Positions 1,785-48,499 of a stretch of DNA of 64,000 nucleotides are shown here, piece after piece. The notes beneath the pieces are model-generated. The model did not search any database. It was not told the origin of the DNA and saw nothing but the letters and a program-made list of their open reading frames with translations. The stretch's first letter is position 1; every line of letters begins with the position of its first letter. The position numbers and the translations under genes are program-made. This DNA is from Lachnospiraceae bacterium (GTDB lineage Bacteria > Bacillota > Clostridia > Lachnospirales > Lachnospiraceae), in assembly GCA_017521605.1 (NCBI GenBank), contig JAFXCD010000009.1, forward strand, positions 173,649 to 237,648, given 5' to 3'.

Positions 1785-3575
1785 ATGGCTAAGGTACAAT
1801 TATTTGCAAACTGGACATGGAAAATGAGCTTACCTGCACCCTTCGATACGGTTGCAGATGTCGTAAGCAAAACATTCTATTCCAAATACTGCACGGTAGT
1901 AACAAAGAAAGCCACTCTGCACTCTCCCATTTTGAGTGCTGTACTTGCTTATCTGGATATGGATACTTCATTTAATCCTGCTTCCACCTCAGAGTGTGCC
2001 ATTGGTACCCAGGGGGATAAGATCATTTCAGAATATCAAAGCAGGACCACTGAGATTCATGCAGTTGTCTTCAACAAAAAGAATGGCAAGTTTAATGTGG
2101 GACGTTATGCTGATGCAACCTCCTCCCCCAAGGTCTATTCCCTAAAGGATGGAGGAAATACCGGAACAGCACTATTCTTCACGCTTATGCCGGAAGCATT
2201 ACAGGATGATGAGTTCAAGGAATACTATGACATTCTTGGCAAATGCAAAAATGATGGTTTTACGGATATGGATGAAGCCCAAAAAGCTGCCTTCATCCTG
2301 TGTGATAACTTATATCGCCGCATTGAAGGTGCCGGTACATTACCAACTGCAGGTATTCACTTAAATATCCCTTCCACCGGTAACATCGCTCCCCTGACTC
2401 CCATGAACCTCAATAAGAAAGCATATTCCCCAAGTAGTGTACTATATGGTAACTTTACTATCCTTACCGGTACACCAGCTTCATCAGGAACAACTCTCAC
2501 AACGGATAAGAACGACTTTATCAATCATTTTCCACTTTCGGAAAGAAACCTTTCCCCACAAGAACAATTACTGATACCACGAATTGAAGACTGGTACGTC
2601 ATTCCACCGGAAGTAGTAACCATCTGTAAACACGCATATCAGACCACCAACAGTGTGCAGCCTATGCGTAACTTTATGATGCGTGGGCCTGCCGGTACCG
2701 GAAAAACAGAAGGTGCAAAGGCGATTGCTGCAGGTCTGGGTATTCCTTACCTTTATTACACCTGCTCTGCCAATACTGAGATCTACGATTTTCTTGGACA
2801 GATGCTTCCTGAAACAGATGAGAAGAACAATTCCTTTAAGGAATATCCGTCTCTTATGGACATTCAGATGGATCCGCCGACCGCTTACAAGAAGCTGACC
2901 GGAATCTATGATGAAGCCATTACTGATGCGGAAGTTTACAGCAAACTGTTAGAAGTCATGGAACAGGATGCCAAAGCACTTGCTGCCGAAAATGCTACCG
3001 GACAGAGATTCCGTTACGTGGAAACACCATTAATCACTGCAATCCGCAATGGTTATCTGATTGAGATTCAGGAACCTACTGTAATTGCAAATCCCGGTGT
3101 CTTAGTAGGATTAAATGCATTGCTTGACCGCTGTGCAAGTATCACACTTACCACCGGAGAGGTAATTAAGCGTCATCCGGATACCGTCGTGGTTATCACA
3201 ACCAACAATAACTATGCAGGGTGCCGTGACATGAATCAGTCTGTTATCTCCAGAATGAATCTGATTATGGATGTTGAAGCTCCTGATGTGGATACTCTGG
3301 CAGAACGAACCATGAAGGTTACCGGCTGCACAGATAAAACCATTGTTACTGACATGGCAGTATCTATTCAGGAAATCAGTGAACGGTGTAAGGAAACAAT
3401 GATTAATGACGGTAGCTGCGGGGTGCGTGAACTTATCAGCTGGGTGCAGTCCTACATGGTCTGTGGGGATGTACTGGAAGCTGCCAAGTACACTGTCTTA
3501 TCCTCAGTATCCAGTGATCCTGAGAACCGTGCGGATATCCAATCCTCTTGCCTGGAGCAACGCTTTGCCGCATAA
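1785..3575 (+). CDS. MoxR-type AAA+ ATPase
   Basis: A 596-residue protein. The N-terminal ~270 residues are unrecognised. A AAA+ module follows, with Walker A GPAGTGKT at about 302-309, a Walker B-like GYLIEIQEP and sensor-1 TTNNNY near 473, then VISRMN as arginine-finger region. MoxR/RavA-type ATPases act with VWA proteins as chaperone-like remodelling machines, and here the VWA partner follows two genes later (3850). The ATPase is larger than a minimal MoxR because of its N-terminal extension, which may select the substrate. The actual target in this element is unknown. Confidence 0.8.
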   Translation: MAKVQLFANWTWKMSLPAPFDTVADVVSKTFYSKYCTVVTKKATLHSPILSAVLAYLDMDTSFNPASTSECAIGTQGDKIISEYQSRTTEIHAVVFNKKNGKFNVGRYADATSSPKVYSLKDGGNTGTALFFTLMPEALQDDEFKEYYDILGKCKNDGFTDMDEAQKAAFILCDNLYRRIEGAGTLPTAGIHLNIPSTGNIAPLTPMNLNKKAYSPSSVLYGNFTILTGTPASSGTTLTTDKNDFINHFPLSERNLSPQEQLLIPRIEDWYVIPPEVVTICKHAYQTTNSVQPMRNFMMRGPAGTGKTEGAKAIAAGLGIPYLYYTCSANTEIYDFLGQMLPETDEKNNSFKEYPSLMDIQMDPPTAYKKLTGIYDEAITDAEVYSKLLEVMEQDAKALAAENATGQRFRYVETPLITAIRNGYLIEIQEPTVIANPGVLVGLNALLDRCASITLTTGEVIKRHPDTVVVITTNNNYAGCRDMNQSVISRMNLIMDVEAPDVDTLAERTMKVTGCTDKTIVTDMAVSIQEISERCKETMINDGSCGVRELISWVQSYMVCGDVLEAAKYTVLSSVSSDPENRADIQSSCLEQRFAA

Positions 3576-3586
3576 GGAGGTGTCCT

Positions 3587-3853
3587 ATGGTAACCGTTAA
3601 TGAAGACTACCTGAAACAAAATCTCGCAAGAAATATGCGTTTTTTACGAATGAGTAATTCACCACGCATATCTCAGACAATGCTTGCAAATAAACTGGGC
3701 ACCACTCAGGCAAGTATTTCTCTGTATGAAACTGCAATGCTTCTACCACCGGCACATATTCTCGTAGCCATGGCAGAGTGTTTTGGTTTTACCACAGACG
3801 AACTCTTGTCAGATAGCCTCCCAGATAAGAAAGGAATGAAGAAAAACGAATGA
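3587..3853 (+). CDS. XRE-family helix-turn-helix regulator
   Basis: An 88-residue Cro/CI-type protein: NLARNMRFLRMSN, then the helix-turn-helix SQTMLANKLGTTQASISLYE and a typical C-terminal FGFTTDELL. The start at 3587 is set by AAGGAGG seven bases upstream; a longer in-frame extension would overlap the ATPase gene and lacks a site. Its stop overlaps the next start (ATGA), so it is translationally coupled to the VWA gene. A regulator embedded between ATPase and VWA partner is unusual and may act on the operon promoter. Confidence 0.85.
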   Translation: MVTVNEDYLKQNLARNMRFLRMSNSPRISQTMLANKLGTTQASISLYETAMLLPPAHILVAMAECFGFTTDELLSDSLPDKKGMKKNE

Positions 3854-5928
3854 GAACATCACATTTAGCAATCAGACGAATGATTGCAAACAAGAAAAGC
3901 AAGCTGACAGATGAGCAGATTTTTTCCTCCCATCAGTATGCTGCATATCTTACAGATATTGCAGAGGGAGTAACGAAACGCTATGGCCGTTCCAGTAAGG
4001 TAAAAACTTACTGGGACATTTCGCCACAGGCTGACATTGCCCATACAGACAACCGCATTGTGGTACTGAATGCCGGTAACTATCTTACCAGAAGTTTTCC
4101 CACCAGAGAACTTATGGCAGATAGTCTTCTTGGTATTGTTGGACACGAATGCGGTCATATCCTTTTTTCCGACTTTACCATGCTCGGCACCTATCATCAG
4201 ACACTTTTAGGTGGACGCTTTTATCCAAAGGAACCTGCAGACTTATCTCCCAAACAGGAAAGAACCCTGAAGGAAATCCTTGAACGCTTTGAAGATAAGG
4301 ACGAAGCCGTTATCTCTGCGGTAGCACAGGTGACGCATACGCTGGTAAACATTATGGAAGATGTCTATATTGAAGGGCGTATGTGCGATGCCTTTCCCGG
4401 CGGAATCAAAACTGGTATCCTGCTTAACAACATGCGCTTTGCAGATGAAATGGATACCATCCGGCAGGAAATCGACAAATCACACCATGAAGTATTTATC
4501 ATTATCAATCTGTTAATCCAATATGCCAAAGCCGGCGACTTGAACAACCTGGATGGTTATAAGGGCCCTTATCTCGACGCAGTTTATGACTGTATCCCCT
4601 ACATAGATGAAGGTGCCTATGATGATGACTCCAGAGTACGCTTCGATGCCGCCAACAAGATTCTGCTTCTTCTATGGCCTTTTATGAAAAGCTTTATTGA
4701 TAAGGTTCGTGAAGACATCAAGAATGGGACCAATCATGCGGCAGAGGATCTAATCGATCAGGTTGCACCTACAACTCCTCTCCCCGGCGGAAAAGGAAAA
4801 CCGGCCCCCAAGGCTGGCAAATCCAAACACTCCCGTGAAGATGATGACGAGGACCTTGAAAAGCTTCAGCAGGTCTTAGACTACGAAAGCGGCAGAATGG
4901 AACTGGAAAAGACGGATGATATTGATGAAGATGGTGATGGCGGAATAACCAAAAACTCCGACTTTGCCGGAAGCGGATATGTATCTCAGGCAGCTGCGGA
5001 TATGGAACGTATTATGACGCAGCTTGCTGAAGATGCCGCTTACGAACAATATGAGGAAGAACTTGCTGCAGAGTTACAACAGGAAGCTGACAAAATCCGT
5101 TACGGAAACGCACACCGTGGAATGCATGTTAATATACACCGTATGTCCTATGTGGACCCTGCATATATGGAAGCCTATCAAAAGATAGCTCCTCCACTTC
5201 TGTTAATTTCCAAACGGCTTCAGAAGCAGATTTCCCAGTTACTCAAAGATTACAAAGAAGGCGGAAAGTTAGATAACCTTCCTATGGGTAAGCGTCTTAA
5301 TGTACGTAATGCCTTTCGTAATGATGGGAAGGTTTTTTACAAGCTGAAGCTACCCAATGAAAGAACTGATATTGCCATCGCAGTGCTTAATGATGAAAGC
5401 GGTTCTATGAGCAGTCATGACAGAATCACCTATGCCCGCTCTGCATCCATCATTCTCCATGATTTCTGCAAGGGACTTGATATTCCCATTGCAATCTATG
5501 GTCATACCGAGTTTGATGATGTGGAACTCTATGCCTATGCGGAATTTGACTCCATTGATAACAAGGATCAGTACCGCATGATGGATATGAGTGCCCGCAG
5601 CGGCAACAGGGACGGTGCAGCTTTACGTTATGTGGCTGAACGACTGATGAGTCGTCCGGAAAGCATTAAGCTTCTGATTATTATCTCGGATGGACAACCT
5701 GCAGGTAGCGGTTATTATGGAACAGCTGCCGAAGCAGACCTTCGTGGTATTAAGAAGGAGTATTCTGCCAAGGGGATTCAGCTGTTTGCAGCCGCCATTG
5801 GTAGTGATAAGCCTAACATCCAGCGTATCTACGGAGATGGCTTTCTGGATATTACCAATCTGGAAAAGCTTCCTATGAACCTGGGCAAGCTTATCATCCA
5901 GCAAGTAAAAAACAAATATGTAGCATAA
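3850..5928 (+). CDS. VWA-domain protein with N-terminal HExxH motif (CobT-like)
   Basis: A 692-residue protein. The N-terminal domain carries HECGH at residues 99-103, the zinc-metalloprotease HExxH signature; whether it is catalytic cannot be judged. A long acidic, low-complexity middle (about 300-385) follows. The C-terminal VWA domain has the MIDAS motif DESGSMS near 516 and a later SDGQPAGSG. The arrangement recalls CobT/RavA-partner VWA proteins that work with MoxR-type ATPases such as the one at 1785. The operon probably encodes an ATP-driven remodelling complex. No signal peptide is seen, so it is likely cytoplasmic. Confidence 0.8.
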   Translation: MRTSHLAIRRMIANKKSKLTDEQIFSSHQYAAYLTDIAEGVTKRYGRSSKVKTYWDISPQADIAHTDNRIVVLNAGNYLTRSFPTRELMADSLLGIVGHECGHILFSDFTMLGTYHQTLLGGRFYPKEPADLSPKQERTLKEILERFEDKDEAVISAVAQVTHTLVNIMEDVYIEGRMCDAFPGGIKTGILLNNMRFADEMDTIRQEIDKSHHEVFIIINLLIQYAKAGDLNNLDGYKGPYLDAVYDCIPYIDEGAYDDDSRVRFDAANKILLLLWPFMKSFIDKVREDIKNGTNHAAEDLIDQVAPTTPLPGGKGKPAPKAGKSKHSREDDDEDLEKLQQVLDYESGRMELEKTDDIDEDGDGGITKNSDFAGSGYVSQAAADMERIMTQLAEDAAYEQYEEELAAELQQEADKIRYGNAHRGMHVNIHRMSYVDPAYMEAYQKIAPPLLLISKRLQKQISQLLKDYKEGGKLDNLPMGKRLNVRNAFRNDGKVFYKLKLPNERTDIAIAVLNDESGSMSSHDRITYARSASIILHDFCKGLDIPIAIYGHTEFDDVELYAYAEFDSIDNKDQYRMMDMSARSGNRDGAALRYVAERLMSRPESIKLLIIISDGQPAGSGYYGTAAEADLRGIKKEYSAKGIQLFAAAIGSDKPNIQRIYGDGFLDITNLEKLPMNLGKLIIQQVKNKYVA

Positions 5929-15232: not shown

Positions 15233-15505
15233 TTAATTTACTATAAATGCACTTATTTCAATCTTTTCTTCATTGAGAAAATATTTTTTCACGAATTCTC
15301 TATTAATACGCTGAATATAATTATCTAATGCCATGAAAATACGATTATATCTTTCAATATTTCCTTTATCAAATATAATTGACCCACGAATCTCATTATC
15401 AAAGAAAACGTCACATATGATAACATCTATTATACAAAAAACTCCCAATAATAGTTTATCCCCACTAATTATAAGTGGGGATATTATCATAACATATTTT
15501 TTCAA
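15233..15505 (-). CDS. Possible small last gene of the PRTase/SIS-HAD operon
   Basis: A 90-residue frame starting with TTG 12 bases after the PfkB stop. It has a hydrophobic N-terminal third and a charged C-terminal half, and a GTGGGG/CCCCAC hairpin lies in its first codons. There is no convincing ribosome binding site and no recognised family. It may be a real sixth-to-seventh gene or untranslated 3' region. Confidence 0.3.
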   Translation of the reverse strand: MKKYVMIISPLIISGDKLLLGVFCIIDVIICDVFFDNEIRGSIIFDKGNIERYNRIFMALDNYIQRINREFVKKYFLNEEKIEISAFIVN

Positions 15506-15517
15506 ACAAAATTTGTA

Positions 15518-16516
15518 CTAACCTTCCTCAAACCCACATATGGGACACTTAATCTTAACCTCAATATTATTATCATGAATGGGCCAAAAATCTACTCCCG
15601 TAATTAGTCTTAGTTGTTCTATCCCTTTTGGCTCTTTCAATATTCCCTGGGCTCCAATAAAACCACATGCTTCTGTAGCTAACACTTGTGCTTTCTTCAA
15701 CATTTGAATCAGTTTTACTTGTGAAATATTCTGTACTTCTGGGTATTTCGTTAACAATTCGTATAGGAAGCCAGCCGTCAGCCAATCACCTGCCCCTGCC
15801 GTATCCAAAACATTATTACTATTAATACTCGGAAGATAGTTCCAGTCTCCCCAATCATCATGGTACTTAACTGTAAATTTTAATCCTTCCTGCCCCATTG
15901 TTACAATAACGATTTTTGCTCTGCTATCTTTCAAATCGCATAGTAATTGTTCACAAATTCCTTCCGAAATTCTTGCTGCCGAAAACTTAATTATATCCGA
16001 CGATTGACAACCGCTTAACAAGTTTGAATACATTCGAAATCCATTTGGCTCATACATATTCCACCCTTCTTTATTTATATTAGCCAAATAATTAATTCCT
16101 GACGAAAAACGATCATAAAATAATAAGTTACAATCATTGATTTCCGGCATTAGTTTTCTTGTCTTTTCATCAGAGGGTAAAATAACATTAATAAGATTAT
16201 TTTTACACCTTGAACATGACGTCCTAAAAAAATGAACATTATTAATAGGGTCTATGTTTTCTATAACTACGGATAAGTTTTTTTTACTTTTCTGAAAATA
16301 AACCGGAAATATATGTCTTATTTGTAATGCGTTTTTATACCAGTCTTCAATCTCTCCACTATACTCCGCAGTTAAAAGTTTGGTTTCAAATCCTAGCTGC
16401 GACAATATTGTCAAGACATTTGCAGCTGTTCCGCCTAAACTAATATATGAACTAGTCGACCATTCTATTAAATCCATACAGGCAAATCCTGCCCCCAAAA
16501 CTTTTATATTTTTCAT
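15518..16516 (-). CDS. PfkB-family carbohydrate/nucleoside kinase
   Basis: A 332-residue protein with both PfkB signatures: GGTAANVL at 28-35 and the catalytic DTAGAGDW near 237-244. The family phosphorylates sugars or nucleosides with ATP; which substrate cannot be read here. Two CxxC pairs (CSRC near 99 and CPIC at the C-terminus) may bind a zinc ion, which is not usual in ribokinase-like enzymes. It is the last clear gene of the operon that starts with the Nudix gene, following the 363-residue protein by seven bases. Confidence 0.85.
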   Translation of the reverse strand: MKNIKVLGAGFACMDLIEWSTSSYISLGGTAANVLTILSQLGFETKLLTAEYSGEIEDWYKNALQIRHIFPVYFQKSKKNLSVVIENIDPINNVHFFRTSCSRCKNNLINVILPSDEKTRKLMPEINDCNLLFYDRFSSGINYLANINKEGWNMYEPNGFRMYSNLLSGCQSSDIIKFSAARISEGICEQLLCDLKDSRAKIVIVTMGQEGLKFTVKYHDDWGDWNYLPSINSNNVLDTAGAGDWLTAGFLYELLTKYPEVQNISQVKLIQMLKKAQVLATEACGFIGAQGILKEPKGIEQLRLITGVDFWPIHDNNIEVKIKCPICGFEEG

Positions 16517-16523
16517 GTATCAT

Positions 16524-17615
16524 TCACCAACCAAATATTTCATCATCTAAACATAAACAATATAACTTATTGTTTTCCTCCAAGTACTCTTCATTTGAAG
16601 AATATCCTTGATTTTCTACAACCACTATACCTGCTTTAATAGATTGATTTTCCAAATGTAAAATAGCAAGCAACATACCAAGATCGATTAACTTACTGGA
16701 CTGTGAGGAAAAAGCATACTTATATCCATCTGTAGTTCTTGTATCCCTTCCCAACGCTTTTTCATAGTATCGAACGGTATCATATAATTTTCGATATATG
16801 AGTAAAGGATGATTTTCTGGTACATATATTATGTTTCTTTTATCAATATTATGTACTCTAAAAAGTGTTTCTCCATAATACCTAAGAATCGCTTCTCCAC
16901 GATGTATGTCCGTTGAAGGAAAAGGTACTACTGGGCAAATTTCTATTGGATCAAGAAAATTATAAATAATTTCGAATGCATTTTCCTCGTTCATACCTAA
17001 CATAGGAATCCATATAGTTTGCTCTATAGAGTTATCCTGGGACATAGAGAATGTATTAAACCCTTGCAGGTATTCTGCAGATTCCTCAACAATAACTGGA
17101 TTAATTTTTTCGTCCCACTCACTATTCTCACATACCATAATACATACTTTTTGCGTCTCATTCTTTATCTTTGTTATCCGTTTTATTAAACTAAATACAA
17201 CCGCTCTAGGCATTGCACTAATATCTATAATGATATGTTTATACTTCTGAATGCTTTTTTCATCGAAGTTCTCTCTAACACTTTCTGAAATAACTAAAAC
17301 TTTTGAATTACCCAACTTTGAATATTGAGGAACTTTTTTAATTTCTAATTCTATTCCCTTACTTAACTCCTTTATCCTCTTAATATTTTCTTCACTACGC
17401 GATTCATGAAGCTTATTCTCTTTTACTCCTCTGTCTTCATAATCCACAATACAAACACTCAGGCTGCTTATTTCATCCCTAATACATTCTAGTCCCTTTG
17501 TTGCTCGTGGATCAAACCCTTTACCCGCAATCAATAGCACTTCCTTCTTATCTCTAAAATGCTCTTTTATTGCATCTTCACCCTCTATAAATAGACAGTT
17601 CTCAAATGAAAGCAT
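16524..17615 (-). CDS. Operon protein of unknown function
   Basis: A 363-residue soluble protein I cannot assign. Its pattern suggests alternating strands and helices: LLIAGKGFDPRATKG near 28-42, HIIIDISAMPRAVVF near 126-140, VVPFPSTDIHRGEA near 231-244 and SSQSSKLIDLGMLLA near 306. The charged, Gly- and Pro-rich strand ends look like ligand-binding loops of a Rossmann-like fold. Its start overlaps the ATPase stop by 14 bases with GGGGGAAAGGATA before it, so the two are translationally coupled and probably work together. Confidence 0.75.
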   Translation of the reverse strand: MLSFENCLFIEGEDAIKEHFRDKKEVLLIAGKGFDPRATKGLECIRDEISSLSVCIVDYEDRGVKENKLHESRSEENIKRIKELSKGIELEIKKVPQYSKLGNSKVLVISESVRENFDEKSIQKYKHIIIDISAMPRAVVFSLIKRITKIKNETQKVCIMVCENSEWDEKINPVIVEESAEYLQGFNTFSMSQDNSIEQTIWIPMLGMNEENAFEIIYNFLDPIEICPVVPFPSTDIHRGEAILRYYGETLFRVHNIDKRNIIYVPENHPLLIYRKLYDTVRYYEKALGRDTRTTDGYKYAFSSQSSKLIDLGMLLAILHLENQSIKAGIVVVENQGYSSNEEYLEENNKLYCLCLDDEIFGW

Positions 17616-19515
17616 TATCCTTTCCCCCTAAAGTAAATTCCAATTGACCATCTTCTATAATATCTGTCTGCTGACACATTTTCAACAACTTACTTATATT
17701 ACATCTCTTATAACCTCCGTATGCTAATGGCAACCCATAATAAACACATAACCATCTATTCAAATATAATGTAATCTCACCACTCTTTTTTCCTTCTCTA
17801 CGTTCAAGATATCTTGATGAAATACAAGCCCCTAATACATCTATTAGCAATTGATATTCTGGATTGTTTATATTTTGCTTTAACTCAATCCCACCGATGG
17901 CAATTCCTGTATATGCTCCTCCTTCATAGGAATTTTTACCTAAATCTCTAGCGGATTGTCCCAGTTTTCCTATATTATTGAGAAATCTCTTAATTGTATC
18001 AATATTAGAATATCTAAAATCCATGTCATCCCATCGTTGTTTTACAATGTTATGAATTGTTTCAGTCTGTTCCTCGGCTGTAAGTGTAATACTTTTCCGC
18101 CTCCCATAGTTACCAAGAGACTTAATTCGGCAACTATCAAAATAAGCTCCTGCAAAAACCAAAAATTGTTGAACATTATAAGAAGATAGTATCTGCAAAT
18201 TATTCATTCCATAATAGAATGGAACCTTGCATTTATGGCACACATAAAATCTGGCTCCCTTTTCATTTTTGCTCACAAAATCTTTAAAAGATTCTAATGA
18301 CTTTACTTCTCCTAAGAAAAATGAAAGCTGACCACTCTGCTCCCTGCGTTCCATGATCATTATACTCTCATACCAAATTGCTTTATCCAAAGCAGTCATT
18401 GTCTCATTTTCTTTTAAATATGTCAAAACCTCTGAGTATTTCTGCTGCGTTTCATAATTTTTAACTAAAAATGAATTTATATCTGCGCAAAATTTTTTTA
18501 ATGTCTTATTATAAGGCTTTAAATCTATTTCCTCTGATATGCAATCAGAAAAATTTGTTAGCATACTCATTTGAGCATCTTTAACTCTACGATCGGCAAT
18601 CTTATTTATCATAGAATAAAATGATCCATTTTTATCCGACCAATAATTGTCAATTACGATGTTTAGGTTATAATCTCTATCTAAACTTCCATCCATAGAA
18701 ATTACTTGTGCATTTTCAACACCTTCTAGTCTTTGTCCAAACCATACCCCTATATTCGCTTTTAATGTAAGTACTGCTTCTGACACATATTGCCTTTGAC
18801 TGGTTGCCAATTTATGAAAATCATCGAATATCATTAATGTCTTTTCAAAATACTGCTCATTATTAATCAAAATATTGTTTGGTTCAAATAATTTCAAAAT
18901 AATAAGTGTTGTATTAATAAATGAAAGAGTTATACTTTCTACCCTGTCACTATCTAAATATTTACATAACTCCCTTTCACCATTGCAAGCCCAATCATAC
19001 AATGTTCTTCCATTTTCAAAATACTCCGACTCAGCTTCCATTTCTTCTGGCAAATTCAAAAAAGATACTTTTTCATAATCCTCTAAGGACCAATCAAATA
19101 CCTTCTCAATTCCACGCATAAATGAGATTGCAATACGATAATTTAGCAAAGCAAAAAATACTTGCTTTCGTCTACCGTTTTGAAACATTTCTTCTATAAT
19201 ACTATAATTTCGGGCACATGAAAGATACCCACTAAGGAGAAGCGTCTTATCATTATGTATAACTCCCAATCGTTTCATGTAATCGAAATATTCTTTATTA
19301 TCATCTTTTTGCTCTTTGCTCGCCGCTCTGCTCAATATTTCATTTGAAAAAGCACGAAATAAAGAAGTTTTTCCTGCTCCAGGTGTACTTGACACATAAC
19401 TTACTCCTGAAAAATTTTTTTCCTCTATCATTTGTAAAACCGTGCTTTCAAAAAGTGCTAAAAAATCAGATTGCTGCTCTGTATTTTTTACTAAAAAAGG
19501 ATTTTTCCAAACCAT
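17602..19515 (-). CDS. ORC/AAA-like P-loop ATPase of a conflict-type operon
   Basis: A 637-residue protein. Walker A is SSTPGAGKTSLF at about 42-53 and Walker B LMIFDDFHK near 228-236, with ASQR-like residues after it; this resembles ORC/CDC6-like and STAND-like ATPases. A CHKC pair near 430 may hold zinc. The C-terminal third has a helical, possibly winged-helix part. Such ATPases often sense or switch in bacterial conflict systems. Its ribosome binding site AAGGAGATG lies inside the end of the PRTase-like gene, which shows tight coupling. Confidence 0.8.
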   Translation of the reverse strand: MVWKNPFLVKNTEQQSDFLALFESTVLQMIEEKNFSGVSYVSSTPGAGKTSLFRAFSNEILSRAASKEQKDDNKEYFDYMKRLGVIHNDKTLLLSGYLSCARNYSIIEEMFQNGRRKQVFFALLNYRIAISFMRGIEKVFDWSLEDYEKVSFLNLPEEMEAESEYFENGRTLYDWACNGERELCKYLDSDRVESITLSFINTTLIILKLFEPNNILINNEQYFEKTLMIFDDFHKLATSQRQYVSEAVLTLKANIGVWFGQRLEGVENAQVISMDGSLDRDYNLNIVIDNYWSDKNGSFYSMINKIADRRVKDAQMSMLTNFSDCISEEIDLKPYNKTLKKFCADINSFLVKNYETQQKYSEVLTYLKENETMTALDKAIWYESIMIMERREQSGQLSFFLGEVKSLESFKDFVSKNEKGARFYVCHKCKVPFYYGMNNLQILSSYNVQQFLVFAGAYFDSCRIKSLGNYGRRKSITLTAEEQTETIHNIVKQRWDDMDFRYSNIDTIKRFLNNIGKLGQSARDLGKNSYEGGAYTGIAIGGIELKQNINNPEYQLLIDVLGACISSRYLERREGKKSGEITLYLNRWLCVYYGLPLAYGGYKRCNISKLLKMCQQTDIIEDGQLEFTLGGKDNAFI

Positions 19516-19518
19516 ATT

Positions 19519-20634
19519 TTACATCTCCTTATGTCGTGTAACTCTCGGAAACAATGCATCCACTTTGTCCTCCCAAGAATACCACAAAACTGGCAACGAG
19601 TTATTTGGTGTATTATGTGATAGAATCAAAGGCAACGCACAATCTGCAAACCCCAAATATGGATGAATCCCCTCGCCTTTTTCAAAGTGTTTATCTTCGT
19701 AACTTTTATAGCCCCTTGTTTTATGTTTACAATAATTCTTTTCTAATAATTTCAATAATTCTTGCTGTTGTTCAAATTCAACTGGCTTTACAATTTGCAC
19801 TGCTTCCACCGTAATATCAGAAATACCTTTTTCTAACGAGTATATTTTTAATTGCTCTTTCATATAATCCAATGATTTTTCGGTAGATATATATATAATA
19901 ACATGTATGTCTGCACTTTTATAGTCAAATTCATTGCGTTCTAGTAGATCGATAAATTTATTTATTTTCCCATGCCATCCGTCCTCGTCTTTACGAATAA
20001 AGCTCTTACCGCTTCCAGTAAAATCGTCAATCAGAAAGAAAGTACTTATACCGGCTTCTTTTAAATTAGAATATTTGCTCTTCACACTTTGAACTTGTGC
20101 ATCTTTAATAAACTCCGAGCGCATTTCTTTTGCTTTTTCTAAAGAAAAATCATAATGAACGAATACTTGCTCATTGCTAAGTTCCGGATTTTGTCTTCTA
20201 AAAAAGTCCATATGTGCTCCATCGCTCAAACCTAAGAACAGGCTACTTCTTCGAAAAAAATAATACAGCTTTTTGCGTTCATCTATATTATCTACTTTAT
20301 TCTGATTACAAAACATTCTTGTCTTATCCAGCAAGTGCCGCTTCATTTTCAAAGGAAATACATACATTACGAGCTGACGCATTTCTTCTTCCGATATGTA
20401 TATCAACTGATTCTTGACAAACTCATATGCCATTTGTTTTTCTTCTGGTGTATCGAATTGACGTAGCCATAACGCAATACTCTCTATATATCTCATACCA
20501 TGCGTGTATTGTTGATAATCATCATATTTTATCTCAGAAATAATTTGTATATTTTTTATTTCAGATACACTTTCAACAATTTTCCAATTTTGCATTTCTT
20601 CTTTTAGTATTGCCTGTGCCAACTCATCCTTCAT
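19519..20634 (-). CDS. Phosphoribosyltransferase-like protein
   Basis: A 371-residue protein. FFLIDDFTGSGKSF near residues 200-213 matches the PRPP-binding loop of type I PRTases (hydrophobic strand, two acidic residues, then TGSGxS). I recall a conflict-associated PRTase group (PRTase-CE) from comparative genomics and this resembles it, but no search was done. The N-terminal ~190 residues are helical. Catalysis could be glycosidic bond formation or breakage with PRPP; substrate unknown. It lies four bases after the SIS-HAD gene and four before the ATPase gene. Confidence 0.75.
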   Translation of the reverse strand: MKDELAQAILKEEMQNWKIVESVSEIKNIQIISEIKYDDYQQYTHGMRYIESIALWLRQFDTPEEKQMAYEFVKNQLIYISEEEMRQLVMYVFPLKMKRHLLDKTRMFCNQNKVDNIDERKKLYYFFRRSSLFLGLSDGAHMDFFRRQNPELSNEQVFVHYDFSLEKAKEMRSEFIKDAQVQSVKSKYSNLKEAGISTFFLIDDFTGSGKSFIRKDEDGWHGKINKFIDLLERNEFDYKSADIHVIIYISTEKSLDYMKEQLKIYSLEKGISDITVEAVQIVKPVEFEQQQELLKLLEKNYCKHKTRGYKSYEDKHFEKGEGIHPYLGFADCALPLILSHNTPNNSLPVLWYSWEDKVDALFPRVTRHKEM

Positions 20635-20638
20635 GTAT

Positions 20639-22519
20639 TCATCCCCACTTAACTTTATTATCTGCTATTGTTAATTTTTCTGATAAATAGTACCATGTTG
20701 CTTCCAAGTTCCTAATTCCCGGTTTGGAATAATTCCAGCAAAACCATGGCGAATTAGAAATATAATCAACACTTACTCCGTAAGTAGTCTGCAGTAATTC
20801 GTAATCATTCCCCCCAAAATGTCCGGCATCACCAATTCGCAAAAAGTCATTTTGTTCAAAATCCTTCCATTCTTTCCAAAGGAAAATGTTATTCTTACTA
20901 CTCGTCAATGGTATTATATCGATTGAATGACTCGATTCCAATATTTTAAGGGTAGGTACTCCTTGTACAAAAGCCTTTATCATTTCAAAACTGTCGCCAT
21001 ACTTTCCATCTGTACCTTTAATTATTGTAAGCTGATATGGATTTTTTTCAATCAGACCATCCACTACCATAACATCATCAGGGAAATATTTATACACGTA
21101 TTTTCCTATTTCTGCAAATTCATTTGGAAACTCTTTCTCCATTTTATTTGGTATTGACTCATCAGCTAGGGTTCCTATACAACCTCCATTATAATAAGCT
21201 ATTACAACTTGTTCCCAATAAGATTTATTAATAACTTTTTGAAGCTCTTTCCTGACCGATTTCCCTCTTCCAGTTGCAATACCAATCTTAATCCCTGCTT
21301 CTAAAAACTCGTTTATTTTTATATAGATCTCTCTCTCCGTTGCAGTGCTTTTCTCCTTATTATGCAAAGTTCCATCATAATCAAAAACTATACCTCGAAA
21401 TACATGATTCTGTAATTTATTATAATTTGTCTTACTTTGAGATATACATTCCTCCAAATCGATACTCATACCTGCAATATTTTTTCTTTCTGCCGCACTT
21501 AATATTATATTGTTATTTTTCTTCTCCAAATTATAATTTATATGATACATTTTTTTACCAAATTCTGAGACTTTAGGCTTGCCTGGATCAATTCCCCTAA
21601 ATATACCTGCATGATAAACTATTTCAAAGACATAATGAAATGCTTCAAAAAGTCCCATAATGGTCGTATCATCAACATCTAATCTTAGGACCGGAATCTC
21701 TTCTGGAACAATTTGTAAGGTTTGAGTTGCCAACTTTTTTTCTCTTGTTGAAACCAGTGCTATAATACCTGTACTATTTGCTCTATCACTTAACCAATAA
21801 TGACGTCCGTGTGCGAAATTCCGAAAATCAACTAATTGAATATTTCCCAAAGAAGTTTCACTAAATTTTGATTCTAAATCAACTGCTGCTGGCGATGTAA
21901 TTCCACCATGTAATACAACAATACTTTCCTTAGATAAAATCCTATTAAGAAGTGCTAAATCCATCTCACCATTTAACCAGCCAGCGTCCTCAGTTATTCT
22001 GAAAAACGGATTATTTGTTGCCCCTGCAAATGCATTTGCTAATATAGTTAAAGAAGATATAATTGATTCAACTGCTAAATAACCATCTTTAGCAACAGGC
22101 ATTTGATATTCAAAAAAATAGTTATGAAGATTATCTCTTTGTAGCTTCTTTATTGGAGAGTTCTTCCTCATACAACAGGTTAATATCCCTTCCATTTCTT
22201 GTTCACTAATAAATTTATAAGCATTTTTAGAATCATTATTGCCTCCACCGGCAGTAAATAACACTGCAACATTTCGTTTTAACTGACTAGAATAATATCC
22301 TAACTCCAAGGGCGTAACACTTTTACACATTCTTCCTGAAATGGTACACATATACTCAAATATTTTCGCAACAGAAAAAGACCCTCCGGATCCAATTCCC
22401 AGAAATGCTCTATTAGTGTACTTGTTTAAAAAACTAATTATTGTTTCACAATTGCACAATCTCGCTTGCTCATAAATTTTGGGGAGCAAATCCAACTCGT
22501 TACGATAATTTTTTCCCAT
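20639..22519 (-). CDS. Double SIS domain fused to HAD hydrolase
   Basis: A 626-residue fusion. Residues about 30-340 contain two SIS (sugar isomerase) modules: the first around FLGIGSGGSFSVAKIFEY, the second around VVLHGGITSPAAVDLESKF. Residues about 375-600 form a HAD hydrolase with motif I FDYDGTL near 379, motif II IATGRG and motif IV GDAGHFGGND near 561. SIS domains bind phosphosugars and HADs often remove phosphate, so the protein may isomerise or sense and then dephosphorylate a sugar phosphate. GAGGAAC precedes the start; the gene follows the Nudix gene by 11 bases. Confidence 0.85.
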   Translation of the reverse strand: MGKNYRNELDLLPKIYEQARLCNCETIISFLNKYTNRAFLGIGSGGSFSVAKIFEYMCTISGRMCKSVTPLELGYYSSQLKRNVAVLFTAGGGNNDSKNAYKFISEQEMEGILTCCMRKNSPIKKLQRDNLHNYFFEYQMPVAKDGYLAVESIISSLTILANAFAGATNNPFFRITEDAGWLNGEMDLALLNRILSKESIVVLHGGITSPAAVDLESKFSETSLGNIQLVDFRNFAHGRHYWLSDRANSTGIIALVSTREKKLATQTLQIVPEEIPVLRLDVDDTTIMGLFEAFHYVFEIVYHAGIFRGIDPGKPKVSEFGKKMYHINYNLEKKNNNIILSAAERKNIAGMSIDLEECISQSKTNYNKLQNHVFRGIVFDYDGTLHNKEKSTATEREIYIKINEFLEAGIKIGIATGRGKSVRKELQKVINKSYWEQVVIAYYNGGCIGTLADESIPNKMEKEFPNEFAEIGKYVYKYFPDDVMVVDGLIEKNPYQLTIIKGTDGKYGDSFEMIKAFVQGVPTLKILESSHSIDIIPLTSSKNNIFLWKEWKDFEQNDFLRIGDAGHFGGNDYELLQTTYGVSVDYISNSPWFCWNYSKPGIRNLEATWYYLSEKLTIADNKVKWG

Positions 22520-22530
22520 ACTTAGTTCCT

Positions 22531-22986
22531 CTATCCTTTAATATACTCCACCTTTGTATATCCACATTCTTCTTTCCACTCTATATATAATTCTGAATAT
22601 TCTCTCTGTAAAAATAATGGGATTCTGTATTCCATTCCCTCTGCTAATTCTTGCTCCTTTATCTTGTCTAGGTCAATCCAACTTATATTTCCTTCTTCAC
22701 AAAACTCATTTACATTTCCTTCATACTCAGTCGCAACGTAATTGAAAATAATATGTCTTTTTAAAATCTCCGGATTATAAATATGGGTTATTCCCACAAA
22801 AGAAGGTTCTAAAATGTTAATTCCTGCTTCTTCAAACAATTCTCTTTTAACACATTCTTCTAGACTTTCTCCATTTTCTAAATGTCCCCCTAGGAAAGCC
22901 CACCCCTTCCAACTTCGTGTTCGATTTATCATAAGTACTTTCCCTTGATTTATTACCGCACACATAGTAGTAAGTTCTATTTTCAT
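22531..22986 (-). CDS. Nudix (MutT-type) hydrolase
   Basis: A 151-residue protein with a complete Nudix box near residues 33-55: GGHLENGESLEECVK, then RELFEEAGI (GX5EX7REUXEEXGU). Such enzymes cleave nucleoside diphosphates linked to another group, for example nucleotide sugars, ADP-ribose or damaged NTPs. It is the first gene of the six-gene operon, with AAAGGATA before the ATG and a -10 box about 40 bases upstream. Confidence 0.9.
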   Translation of the reverse strand: MKIELTTMCAVINQGKVLMINRTRSWKGWAFLGGHLENGESLEECVKRELFEEAGINILEPSFVGITHIYNPEILKRHIIFNYVATEYEGNVNEFCEEGNISWIDLDKIKEQELAEGMEYRIPLFLQREYSELYIEWKEECGYTKVEYIKG

Positions 22987-44578: not shown

Positions 44579-45736
44579 TTAATATGTTCCGGGAATATCA
44601 AATTCTTCCCAATTCATTGATAGTGCCCTTGCAATAGTTTCTTCCATTTTGGTAATCCTGCTTCCTTCTTCACCTTCACAGGTAAGCATATAAAGAATTT
44701 CAGAAATACCATAGTAAATGTCATGTGCAGTACAAGGATCCTCGCCCTGCTGTGCCTTAAATAACTCAACCGCTTCCGCCTGATATCTTTTAGGAATTTT
44801 CAGCTTATCCATGACACCACGCATACAGTTTACCGGATGCATAATATCAATCTTTAAAAGCTTGATAAGATTACCAGTAGCCAGCTGATACTTTGCATAT
44901 AACTGCTTTAACTGCTGGTCAAACTCCGTAATGTCATTTCCATAGCGATGTTCTAAACGTAACGGATTACCAAGATTAATGGTTGTATTCTCTGTACCTG
45001 ATACCAACATTGGATAAATATTCGCTCCTCCGTTTCCAGTATCTGAGGTTGTAATCCTTACCATAGGCTTCATCTCATCCACTGACTTTCCATGTAGCTT
45101 CAGTTCTTCCTTGTATGCTTCAAGCAGCTCGTCCTCACCGGACAACTCCCATAATGCCGAAACCATGTTGTGTTCATAAAAACCACCAATATACTGGCAG
45201 CCTTTAAAACTGGTACTCAGATAGTCCACCGCATGCATATAAATTTCCTCTACATCCATAATGGAATAATCATTACAGTCACCACTCAGTACCGCTGATA
45301 CTTTTCCTTCCGAAAATCGTATCAATGCTTCGCCATTTGCCACCTTCAGCAAATCATTCAGAATACGGGCATAGACACTCTTTTCAACTCTGCGAAGACC
45401 ATTTCCGGCAATCCCGGCTCTGTCAAGAATGCTCTTGATAGCACAGCCTCTGACCGGATAGTATTCACTTTTGTCCTTGAGAAGCAGTCCGGTATTTACG
45501 ATAGTATCTGAGATAATATCCTCATCCAGACCATCATTCACGTACTTCTCGCGCATTTCTTCTGCAATCGGGCTGCCTTCTGTGATTGCCACTAGACGCA
45601 GGTTCTTTGCTTTTCTTCTCTTCCAAAACGAATTAGTTCCAATCCGCTTGAGGCAGGCAAAAAAGTCATCCTGCTCTTGGAAGATGCCCCGATAGCCATC
45701 CTTAAATACACTTGTTTCATTCATTCTTTGTTCCAC
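44579..45736 (-). CDS. First protein of the minus-strand backbone operon (DUF932-like?)
   Basis: A 385-residue soluble protein. It has FWKRRKAKNLRLVAITEGSP near 35-54, a later RIVITTSD-like strand (VRITTSDTGNGGANIYP) and a helical C-terminal third. The layout distantly recalls DUF932 phage/plasmid proteins; this is uncertain. It follows a 360-base leader with two terminators and so should be the most regulated gene of the operon. Confidence 0.65.
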   Translation of the reverse strand: MEQRMNETSVFKDGYRGIFQEQDDFFACLKRIGTNSFWKRRKAKNLRLVAITEGSPIAEEMREKYVNDGLDEDIISDTIVNTGLLLKDKSEYYPVRGCAIKSILDRAGIAGNGLRRVEKSVYARILNDLLKVANGEALIRFSEGKVSAVLSGDCNDYSIMDVEEIYMHAVDYLSTSFKGCQYIGGFYEHNMVSALWELSGEDELLEAYKEELKLHGKSVDEMKPMVRITTSDTGNGGANIYPMLVSGTENTTINLGNPLRLEHRYGNDITEFDQQLKQLYAKYQLATGNLIKLLKIDIMHPVNCMRGVMDKLKIPKRYQAEAVELFKAQQGEDPCTAHDIYYGISEILYMLTCEGEEGSRITKMEETIARALSMNWEEFDIPGTY

Positions 45737-46771: not shown

Positions 46772-48160
46772 ATGGCATCTATAATTAAGAGAAAGAAAAA
46801 ATACTCTGTTGTATATTACTATTATGATGAGAAAGGAGTGAAAAGACAAAAATGGGAAACTTGTCAGGATTATGCTGAAGCAAAAAAGCTAAAGGCTGAA
46901 GTTGAGCATCAGATGAACTCCGGCGCTTTTATTCCTCCACAGGAATTAACGGTTAAAGACTTGCTGGAGGATTTTGTAAGAATCTATGGTAGAACACATT
47001 GGGCTTTATCTACGTTCCAATCCAATGTTGCTTTGATTGCAAACTACATCAACCCTACTATTGGAGATGAATTGGTTCAAAATATTACTCCAAGATTCGT
47101 TGATGATTACTACTTAAGATTACAAAAAGTAAAAAGTGTTTCTGATCGTGGCCGTAAGCCCAAAAATGAATATTTATCGCCTTGTGTGATTCACGAAATA
47201 CATAAGCTTTTGAGATGTGCTTTTGATCAGGCTGTAAAATGGGAAGTGGTTGCTCGCAATCCTTTTCCAAAAGCAAATAAGCCCAAGGTTGAATATAAAA
47301 AGCGAGATATTTGGACAGCTGATATGATCCGTATTGCATTAGATAACTGTGAAGATATGAAATTATATGTAGCAATGAATCTTTCTTTTGCCTGCTCTTT
47401 ACGATTGGGTGAAATCAGTGGTCTCACCTGGAGCAATGTTTTCATTACAGAACAGCATATTTTGAATGATGATGCACATCTACTTGTGAAGCAGGAATTA
47501 TCAAGAGCTTCTAAGGAAACAATGGAGTTATTGGATGATAAGGATATTTATTTTGTATTTCCATCCATGATGTCAAATACTCACACGAACCTAATACTCA
47601 AGAAGCCAAAAACGGATTCAAGTATCCGAAAGGTGTGGATACCTAAAACTGTTGCTTATATCTTGCTTGAATGGAAGGGTATTCAAGATAAGTACAAAGA
47701 ATACTTAGGTTGTGATTATTATGATTATGACCTCGTACTTACTCTACCGAATGGCAGACCTGTTGAAAATCGTGTTATTGACAAGGAGTTTAAGAAGCTT
47801 AAAGAAAAGGCTGGTTTACCTTATGTTGTGTTTCATTCACTCAGACACTCCAGTACAACTTACAAGCTGAAACTTAATCATGGTGACCTGAAAGCAACTC
47901 AGGGAGACACCGGACATTCACAGATAGATATGATTACTGATGTGTATGCTCATATCTTGGATGAAGACAGAAAGATTAATGCTCAGAAATTTGAAGCAAC
48001 TTTTTATCAAAGGAATATCGGTAATCCTTTAAAGGATGTAAAGGCACCAGCAGATGATAACCCTGACTTGAATAATCTTGTATCTGCTTTGCAACAATCA
48101 CCCGAATTAGTAGCAATGCTTACCCAGCTAATAAAGGGAAATGCTCTTAGCACCTCTTAA
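46772..48160 (+). CDS. int: Tyrosine integrase
   Basis: A 462-residue site-specific recombinase. The N-terminal arm-binding domain is near 1-65, the core-binding domain near 60-180, and the catalytic domain follows: Arg near 210 (SLRLGEISGL), HSLRHS near 355, TGHS near 380 and the nucleophile in DVYAHI near 391. It is complete and probably active. It reads toward the tRNA-Arg genes, which are the likely attachment site. Confidence 0.92.
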   Translation: MASIIKRKKKYSVVYYYYDEKGVKRQKWETCQDYAEAKKLKAEVEHQMNSGAFIPPQELTVKDLLEDFVRIYGRTHWALSTFQSNVALIANYINPTIGDELVQNITPRFVDDYYLRLQKVKSVSDRGRKPKNEYLSPCVIHEIHKLLRCAFDQAVKWEVVARNPFPKANKPKVEYKKRDIWTADMIRIALDNCEDMKLYVAMNLSFACSLRLGEISGLTWSNVFITEQHILNDDAHLLVKQELSRASKETMELLDDKDIYFVFPSMMSNTHTNLILKKPKTDSSIRKVWIPKTVAYILLEWKGIQDKYKEYLGCDYYDYDLVLTLPNGRPVENRVIDKEFKKLKEKAGLPYVVFHSLRHSSTTYKLKLNHGDLKATQGDTGHSQIDMITDVYAHILDEDRKINAQKFEATFYQRNIGNPLKDVKAPADDNPDLNNLVSALQQSPELVAMLTQLIKGNALSTS

Positions 48161-48295
48161 CTGCTAATTAACAATTAGCAAGTTATTAGCAAACCTCTAT
48201 AAGTGGTAAAAAGTGGTTCGATTCCCAATTAGCAAATAATTATCGGAATAACGTTACTCTTTTCCGGCTTTAATGACATACAGTATTTTTTGATG

Positions 48296-48339
48296 AAAAA
48301 AAGAAAGCATTGAAAAAATCCAGTGTTTTCAATGCTTTC
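48296..48339 (-). terminator. Terminator of the tRNA-Arg gene
   Basis: GAAAGCATTGAAAA pairs with TTTTCAATGCTTTC; the minus strand then has seven T. It lies directly behind the tRNA 3' end. Confidence 0.85.
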
Positions 48340-48342
48340 AAC

Positions 48343-48414
48343 GTTGGTGAGGCGACTCGAACGCCCGATCTTTCGCTTAGGAGGCGACTGCACTATCCAC
48401 TGTGCTACACCAAC
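48343..48414 (-). tRNA. tRNA-Arg(CCT), intact
   Basis: A 72-base cloverleaf on the minus strand: acceptor GTTGGTG/CACCAAC perfectly paired, D-arm GCAC/GTGC, anticodon loop CTCCTAA (anticodon CCT) and T-arm GGGCG-TTCGAGT-CGCCT. The first anticodon-stem pair is G-A, others pair. It reads codon AGG. It has its own terminator. Its body differs from the truncated tRNA-Arg(CCT) at 48,500, so it may belong to the element. Confidence 0.85.
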
Positions 48415-48499
48415 ATTTATGAAAAACTTGCTAATAAAACAAGCGTTTCACCGTATAAAATTTTGATTTTATGCCCCTTTGGGAATACGCCGCCGTCCA

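What the first reader, a model, noticed from the sequence alone, without database searches (positions are those of the whole stretch)
15518..22986. Six-gene Nudix / SIS-HAD / PRTase / ORC-ATPase / unknown / PfkB operon
Seen: six minus-strand genes with gaps of 4-11 bases or overlaps, four with motifs of nucleotide or sugar-phosphate chemistry (Nudix box, two SIS modules plus HAD, PRPP loop, PfkB signatures) and one with a Walker-type ATPase. Known: PRTase-like and ORC/STAND-like ATPases recur in bacterial conflict systems. Inference: the enzymes could make, modify or destroy a nucleoside or phosphosugar signal while the ATPase and the unknown 363-residue protein sense or execute. It lies as AT-rich cargo in a mobile element, as defence systems often do. 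I know no described system with exactly this set.
Basis: partly seen in the sequence, partly recalled or inferred. Interest (0 to 1): 0.85.

Follow-up and report, generated by a model that had tools for sequence, protein, structure and literature searches.

The report
Mobile PRTase-ATPase-CARF operon with sugar enzymes
A six-gene operon on a bacterial mobile element joins a likely infection-sensing trio (an ATPase, a nucleotide-receptor protein and a sugar-phosphate transferase) to a small set of sugar-phosphate enzymes, and nearly the same combination recurs on plasmids and other DNA of distant bacteria, so it looks like an untested immune system that may work through an unusual sugar-nucleotide.

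The parts
22531..22986 (-). Nudix hydrolase (151 aa), first gene; accessory, otherwise seen only in L002
   Evidence: PF00293 3.7e-19; strict Nudix box found only in window and L002 among 2811 ORFs of the operon loci (a divergent box would be missed)
20639..22519 (-). Double SIS sugar-phosphate isomerase/deaminase-type region fused to HAD-IIB phosphatase (626 aa); cassette gene
   Evidence: PF08282 6.3e-9; SIS region aligned to 8eol/3hba; E221, H237, H240, D380, D382, T384, K542, D564 invariant in 15 of 15
19519..20634 (-). PRTase-CE phosphoribosyltransferase-like protein (371 aa), trio gene, probable effector or signal maker
   Evidence: PF24390 7.3e-24; PADLOC PRTase_III-A 1e-16; PRPP-type loop D203, D204, F205, G209 invariant 16 of 16
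17602..19515 (-). ORC-CDC6-like P-loop ATPase (637 aa), trio gene, probable sensor
   Evidence: 13 of 16 aligned members match PF24389 (best 7.8e-29; the window copy itself does not); Walker A and D231 invariant 16 of 16
16524..17615 (-). Stand-alone CARF protein, CARF6 family, probably tandem (363 aa), trio gene, probable nucleotide receptor
15518..16516 (-). PfkB/ribokinase-family sugar kinase (332 aa) with an unusual CxxC...CxxC pair; cassette gene
   Evidence: PF00294 7.3e-12; profile matches fructokinase 5ey7 1.1e-21; G241, G243, D244 invariant 16 of 16
15457..15483 (-). Intrinsic-terminator-like hairpin after the last gene
   Evidence: 10-pair stem with T-rich tail

Best explanation
The locus is a mobile, two-module conflict system, most likely anti-phage. 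Module 1 is a PRTase-CE / ORC-CDC6-like ATPase / CARF trio that works as one complex: the ATPase detects an infection-linked cue, the CARF protein binds a nucleotide-type ligand and gates the complex, and the PRTase executes by moving a ribosyl- or sugar-phosphate to or from a base or nucleotide, draining or poisoning nucleotide metabolism. Module 2 (SIS-HAD and PfkB, plus Nudix here or NADAR elsewhere) talks to the trio through a small molecule: it isomerises, phosphorylates and dephosphorylates the sugar-phosphate that is the trio's donor, ligand or product, and Nudix/NADAR cut the nucleotide-sugar bonds of leftovers. Shown: gene content, families, the CARF fold of the model, conserved active-site residues, co-occurrence, modular co-evolution, mobile setting. 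Inferred: complex formation, cue, ligand, reaction and phage protection.
For: Trio together in 24 of 24 loci (loci were found by CARF or PRTase, one lone PRTase, L028, is left out, and in G296 the trio lies on two contigs that each end inside the ATPase). Trio distance matrices correlate at r 0.94-0.97, SIS-HAD/PfkB at 0.92, between modules 0.69-0.77. SIS-HAD is present in 23 of 23 loci not cut off at that side; PfkB in 22 of 24. Two plasmids (S. meliloti, R. tumorigenes) carry two trios of different clades but one cassette, and the cassettes of L011 and L009 group with other clades than their trios, as expected if the link is a diffusible metabolite. CARF. PRTases are described as effectors in type III retrons (PMC12548924, passages) and in a DprA-PRTase system protecting against T7 and lambda (PMC9122126, passages). 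PADLOC matches beside the operon: Gabija, Shedu, AbiE, type I methylase, PrrC, caspase, phospholipase effector (10 proteins picked by eye from 6 of 24 loci, all 10 matched).
Against: No experiment. A stand-alone CARF without an effector could instead degrade a ligand, as ring nucleases do. No Cas10 model over cut-off and no SMODS synthase were found in the genome, so the source of a CARF ligand is unknown. Defence neighbours were chosen after reading annotation, with no control; in the other 18 loci none was tested. L012 has a sugar ABC transporter and an arabinofuranosidase downstream on the other strand and an orphan SIS-HAD homologue (L029) sits by a sugar ABC transporter, so this enzyme type can also sit in plain sugar metabolism. 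The ATPase model was too poor to use and the window's ATPase does not itself match PF24389. Plain Foldseek ranks non-CARF folds first for the CARF model. Mantel permutations do not remove shared descent; several deep nodes of the SIS-HAD tree have low support (0.04-0.54).
Confidence: 0.45

Rival explanations
1. Signal-synthesis system: the cassette and PRTase together build a non-standard nucleotide or sugar-nucleotide second messenger; the CARF protein is its receptor and switches the ATPase, with Nudix/NADAR as the off-switch.
For: CARF folds are nucleotide receptors. SIS isomerase, PfkB kinase and HAD phosphatase are the enzyme types used to activate sugars in the ADP-heptose pathway (recalled). 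PRTase plus HAD is the proposed maker of a nucleoside signal in Ter systems (PMC7824862, passages). NADAR and a Nudix box were not seen together in any locus. One cassette can go with two trios.
Against: No obvious killing domain is left to execute. No nucleotidyltransferase family was matched by the six genes. PRTases elsewhere are described as effectors. 11 of 24 loci have neither NADAR nor a Nudix box.
Confidence: 0.25
2. Self-protection cassette: the trio is the toxic machine, and SIS-HAD/PfkB/NADAR/Nudix only repair or recycle damage it causes (for example ribosylated amines or nucleotide adducts), like FrlD kinase plus FrlB deglycase on glycated amines (recalled).
For: PfkB has a weak match to fructoselysine 6-kinase (8.7e-8, far below its cut-off) and SIS matches a deaminase-type enzyme. 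NADAR reverses guanosine ADP-ribosylation of RNA (PMC11833690, abstract). The cassette evolves partly apart from the trio.
Against: The cassette's SIS-HAD is present in all 23 loci that could be checked; a pure repair module might be lost more often. HAD plus kinase is more than a deglycase route needs.
Confidence: 0.13
3. Mobile-element housekeeping or competition: a stress, addiction or exclusion-type function of plasmids and integrative elements that acts against other elements rather than phage.
For: 17 plasmid records, 8 of them typed conjugative; the window copy lies on DNA with integrase and resolvase genes.
Against: It is also on four contigs of a virus collection (L022, L023, L024, L026; some may be host DNA) and in varied plasmid surroundings.
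Confidence: 0.1
4. Ordinary sugar or nucleotide salvage operon.
For: Four genes are plain metabolic families; orphan SIS-HAD near a sugar transporter; arabinofuranosidase and sugar transporter next to one copy.
Against: No transporter seen between the operon genes in 24 loci; the core includes CARF and an ORC-CDC6-like ATPase; sporadic distribution (2 of 392 order genomes).
Confidence: 0.07

Closest known systems
Retron type III PRTase/winged-helix effectors (PADLOC PRTase_III-A; that this label means retrons is my inference)
   Same: PRTase homologous (PADLOC model 1e-16); PRTase described as effector in a defence operon (PMC12548924, passages)
   Different: No reverse transcriptase matched among the six genes; ATPase and CARF instead; added sugar cassette
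Can1 / Csm6 / Can2 / Cam1 CARF effectors of type III CRISPR
   Different: No effector domain matched in the 363-aa protein; no Cas10 model (Csm1, Cmr2) over cut-off in the genome
Chp CARF-HAD phosphatase effectors (PMC12715507, passages)
   Same: CARF and HAD phosphatase in one system; nucleotide-level effect
   Different: There fused in one membrane protein that binds cA4; here the HAD is fused to SIS in a separate cassette
DprA-PRTase anti-phage system (PMC9122126, passages)
   Same: PRTase as suggested effector with a separate sensor; protects against T7 and lambda
   Different: Two components, DprA and PRTase; homology of the two PRTases not tested
Ter systems with PRTase and HAD (PMC7824862, passages)
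   Same: PRTase plus HAD proposed to make a nucleoside-like signal
   Different: No Ter family matched among the six genes
Pfam pair PF24390 PRTase-CE and PF24389 ORC-CDC6-like; PADLOC CARF6
   Same: The trio proteins or their relatives belong to these families
   Different: What their authors wrote about operon context could not be read; I saw no held paper linking them to the sugar cassette (listings; one search showed 20 of 49)

Membership tests
CARF superfamily (16524-17615) | Sequence match to CARF family models | tested here: met
   PDLC01910 1.1e-68; 19 of 19 aligned copies match three CARF6 models
CARF superfamily (16524-17615) | CARF fold | tested here: met
CARF superfamily (16524-17615) | Binds cyclic oligoadenylate or another nucleotide | not testable with these tools
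   Needs binding assay
Type III CRISPR accessory | Cas10 cyclic-oligoadenylate synthase in operon or genome | tested here: not met
   Not matched by the six genes; own genome: Csm1 model 4 hits, all below cut-off and covering only model positions 3-106, Cmr2 none. Genome 92.9% complete
CBASS | SMODS/CD-NTase synthase | tested here: not met
   Not matched by the six genes; PF18144 absent in own genome at E 0.01
PRTase-CE (PF24390) | Score above the family cut-off | tested here: met
   85.5 bits against 27
PRTase-CE (PF24390) | PRPP-type loop retained | tested here: met
   D203, D204, F205, G209 invariant 16 of 16; loop pattern found in 22 of 23 full-length copies
PRTase-CE (PF24390) | Transferase activity | not testable with these tools
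   Needs assay
ORC-CDC6-like (PF24389) | Score above cut-off | tested here: inconclusive
   13 of 16 aligned members match at E 0.05 or better; the window copy gives no match at E 1 nor at 1e-6 in the genome scan
ORC-CDC6-like (PF24389) | Walker A and B motifs | tested here: met
   P45 G46 G48 K49 and D231 invariant 16 of 16
Retron type III | Reverse transcriptase and msDNA RNA beside the PRTase | tested here: not met
   No reverse transcriptase family matched by the six genes; the RNA was not searched
Ter system | TerB/TerC/TerD components | tested here: not met
   No Ter family matched by the six genes
Anti-phage defence system | Protects a host from phage | not testable with these tools
   Only context evidence

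The most novel reading that the evidence does not exclude
An immune system that signals or kills with a sugar-nucleotide built on the spot: the SIS-HAD/PfkB cassette makes an unusual activated sugar-phosphate, PRTase-CE joins it to a base, the CARF protein reads or gates the product, and Nudix or NADAR erases it. This would be nucleotide-signalling immunity without any nucleotide cyclase or oligonucleotide polymerase.
Probability: 0.16. Interest if true: 0.88.

Novelty: new variant of a known kind. Interest (0 to 1): 0.62.

Why it matters
CARF receptors are known mainly as readers of cyclic oligoadenylate made by Cas10. Here a stand-alone CARF protein is locked to a PRTase and an ATPase, in a genome where no Cas10 was found, together with a sugar-phosphate cassette that evolves partly on its own. 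That makes two open questions directly testable: what ligand CRISPR-independent CARF proteins read, and what PRTase effectors of retrons and related systems do chemically. The cassette narrows the chemistry to sugar-phosphates, and the two-trio plasmids give a natural test of whether a diffusible product is shared.

Tried and rejected
PDB sequence search with the CARF and PRTase profiles found nothing at E 5; with the ATPase profile the best of 64 was E 0.0033, matches mostly at the P-loop. The ATPase structure prediction failed (pLDDT 51) and was not searched. Foldseek's own ranking of the CARF model is unspecific; I rely on the realignment with the HMM matches. Phage records: no match for PRTase or CARF. 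Viral contigs with the single PRTase sequence: none; alignments were needed. E. coli genomes: no DNA-level match for the PRTase gene. Near-identical operon DNA in plasmids: none. The tRNA-Arg 3' end occurs once in the genome, so no att pair was found. Type III CRISPR or CBASS as ligand source in trans: no support in the own genome. Nudix as a general part: rejected (2 of 24). My first Walker A pattern was too narrow (1 of 23); the alignment column audit replaced it. The same pattern audit (orphans L028 and L029 included) gave PRPP loop 22 of 23, HN-PNN 21 of 23, SIS GSGGS 19 of 21, SIS glutamate pattern 17 of 21, HGRH 20 of 21, HAD DxDGT 21 of 21, HAD GD-GND 19 of 21, PfkB GAGD 19 of 21. ORF 15233-15505 overlaps the terminator and has no family hit; I do not count it as a gene. 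DefensePredictor (PMC13092281, passages) names a PRTase in a figure of its systems; I could not tell whether it is related.

Rows left out of counts: L025 duplicates L022; L018/L027 and L006/L030 are each one locus; L001, L003, L021, L044 are the window itself; L028 (PRTase alone) and L029 (SIS-HAD homologue alone) are outside the 24. The tree and Mantel set holds 22 trios from 20 loci; L014, L017, L031 and G296 were not included. In that set I assigned the R. tumorigenes cassette to the nearer trio; its SIS-HAD groups with the clade of the other trio, so it is not counted as a swap.
Full report
1. Observation. The six ORFs lie exactly where described, on the minus strand, with gaps of 11, 4 and 3 bases, an overlap of 14 and a gap of 7, followed by a terminator-like hairpin at 15483-15457. 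Pfam places Nudix, HAD, PRTase-CE and PfkB. The double SIS region of the 626-aa protein is not hit by Pfam, but the family profile aligns over its whole length to solved SIS enzymes (8eol/3hba, E 2e-5), with a glutamate and an HG motif in register. That these are catalytic residues is recalled from GlmS-type enzymes.

3. The ATPase. The window copy has no Pfam match of note, but 13 of 16 aligned members match PF24389 ORC-CDC6-like, best 7.8e-29. Walker A and the Walker B aspartate are invariant. Its structure model failed.

4. Co-occurrence. tblastn of CARF, PRTase (E 1e-5) and SIS-HAD (E 1e-10) against 72,556 plasmid records gave 17, 18 and 18 records; 17 are shared by all three. If independent, about 0.004 shared records per pair would be expected, though related records (three Agrobacterium) are not independent. 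The two exceptions are a lone PRTase (L028) and a SIS-HAD homologue by a sugar ABC transporter (L029). Fifteen of the 17 plasmids are alphaproteobacterial, one is Paenarthrobacter (Actinomycetota) and one Paraburkholderia. Other copies: a Lachnospiraceae MAG (L002, CARF 82% identical, same six-gene order), genome G296 of the same order (L004 and L046, two contigs that each end inside the ATPase gene) and four IMG/VR contigs (L022, L023, L024, L026). L024 also holds genes that I read as Mu-type transposition genes (recalled, no family search). In genomes, 2 of 392 of the order have the CARF, the own genome included, and in a phylum sample only the own genome, 1 of 398. Genome sets could be centred only on the window's relatives, so abundance outside Bacillota is known only from plasmids and viral contigs.

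5. Anatomy over 24 loci (with 68, 71, 72). PRTase, ATPase and CARF together: 24 of 24 (loci were found by CARF or PRTase). SIS-HAD: 23 of 23 (L022 is cut at the PRTase). PfkB: 22 of 24; the two without (L012, L026) have NADAR. NADAR: 10 of 24. Strict Nudix box: 2 of 24. Neither: 11, and G296 cut off. Two plasmids (S. meliloti pRRI128_5; R. tumorigenes pRt1078) have two trios and one SIS-HAD/PfkB/NADAR/HTH cassette. In L017 the PRTase, CARF and SIS-HAD genes are each in more than one piece.

6. Two modules. Pairwise distance matrices correlate at 0.94-0.97 within CARF-ATPase-PRTase (22 trios), 0.92 for SIS-HAD with PfkB (17), and 0.69-0.77 between modules; none of 2000 permutations reached any of these, but permutations do not remove common descent. 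Trees show exchange: the Bradyrhizobium (L011) and Sphingomonas (L009) cassettes group, with good support, with other clades than their trios; several deep nodes of the SIS-HAD tree are weak. In both two-trio plasmids the trios belong to different clades. I infer that the trio is a physical unit and that cassette and trio meet through a metabolite.

7. Active sites. Motif residues are conserved: PRPP-type loop, SIS E221/H237, HAD D380/D382/K542/D564 and PfkB GxGD are invariant in the alignments (looser pattern audit, with a few misses told under Tried and rejected). The PfkB of the window has a CxxC motif with a second C-terminal CxxC; both patterns are missing in L006, L009, L016, L017, L019 and L027, all NADAR loci. 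A zinc site is my inference.

8. Setting. PADLOC matches beside the operon: GajA/GajB (L017), SduA (L014), type I methylase, PrrC and AbiEi (L026), AbiEi and a short AbiEii (L002), caspase (L016) and phospholipase effector (L018). I chose these ten proteins by eye from 6 of 24 loci, so this is not an enrichment test. In the window the operon lies in a long AT-rich stretch (about 9-35 kb) with a resolvase-domain gene upstream; a phage-type integrase lies beside tRNA-Arg. A gene near that integrase (44579-45736) occurs in 7 of 61 genomes of the genus, own included.

9. Mechanism. PRTases are treated as effectors in type III retrons (PMC12548924, passages) and, with DprA, in a system active against T7 and lambda (PMC9122126, passages). 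PRTase plus HAD is the proposed maker of a nucleoside signal in Ter systems (PMC7824862, passages). A phage enzyme homologous to Nampt uses ADP-ribose pyrophosphate in preference to PRPP (PMC12774641, passages), so non-standard donors are realistic. NADAR reverses guanosine ADP-ribosylation (PMC11833690, abstract), and Nudix domains cut NAD and ADP-ribose derivatives (PMC9503650, passages). SIS, PfkB and HAD together are enzyme types of ADP-heptose synthesis (recalled). I therefore favour a trio with PRTase effector and a cassette handling its sugar-phosphate, ahead of a pure signal-synthesis reading. A CARF needing cyclic oligoadenylate made in trans is not supported here: no Csm1 or Cmr2 over cut-off and no SMODS in the 92.9% complete genome.

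10. Known or new. All five general parts have models in Pfam or PADLOC. PRTase-CE and ORC-CDC6-like carry consecutive Pfam numbers, which suggests (not shown) that one group described them together; Makarova 2014 (PMC4012209, passage) mentions a kinase-AAA+-CARF fusion. Consistent with that, a protein in L053 that matches ORC-CDC6-like (7.9e-20) has a gene with a weak CARF match (1.7e-4) next to it. Makarova 2020, Burroughs 2015 and Burroughs 2020 were not found by the DOIs I recalled. In the held library the listings (20 of 49 shown) showed no paper that ties CARF and PRTase to SIS, PfkB, HAD or NADAR genes; I judged this from listings and passages. PRTase-CE itself is commoner than the trio: 13 of 392 genomes of the order, and in 12 of 14 places no trio partner was seen within the short fetched flanks. 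Hence: new variant of a known kind, with the cassette coupling as the interesting part.

Noticed in passing
L006/L030 and L018/L027: Two divergent PRTase-ATPase-CARF trios lie with one SIS-HAD/PfkB/NADAR/HTH cassette on one plasmid (S. meliloti, R. tumorigenes).
   Followed up: yes
window 15518-16516 and homologues: PfkB carries an unusual CxxC plus C-terminal CxxC pair; both patterns are missing in the PfkBs of six NADAR loci.
   Followed up: partly
L002:1159-1654: The AbiEii gene is short (149 aa; match covers 128 of 306 model positions) and ends just where the Nudix-led operon begins, as if the operon had landed in an AbiE system.
   Followed up: partly
L053:1-3291 (minus): An 838-aa protein matching ORC-CDC6-like, by eye with a kinase-like N-terminus, is next to a gene with a weak CARF match: ATPase-CARF pairing may recur in another architecture.
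   Followed up: no
L024:1291-4302 (minus): Genes that look like phage Mu transposition genes (by eye) lie a few kb from the operon, which may be cargo of a Mu-like phage.
   Followed up: no
window 46772-48415: Phage-type integrase beside tRNA-Arg(CCT) suggests an integrative element; the tRNA 3' end has no second copy in the assembly, so the far end is unknown.
   Followed up: partly
window 1785-5928: AAA_5-type gene followed, after a small ORF, by a CobT-type vWA gene, a MoxR-vWA-like pair.
   Followed up: no
L033:925-1800 (own genome contig C24): A NADAR protein more distant from the operon NADARs (7e-13 to their HMM) is encoded elsewhere in the same genome.
   Followed up: no
L017:4936-11922: Copy in Rhizobium sp. 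CC-CFT758 has the PRTase, CARF and SIS-HAD genes each broken into two or more frames, next to a Gabija system.
   Followed up: no
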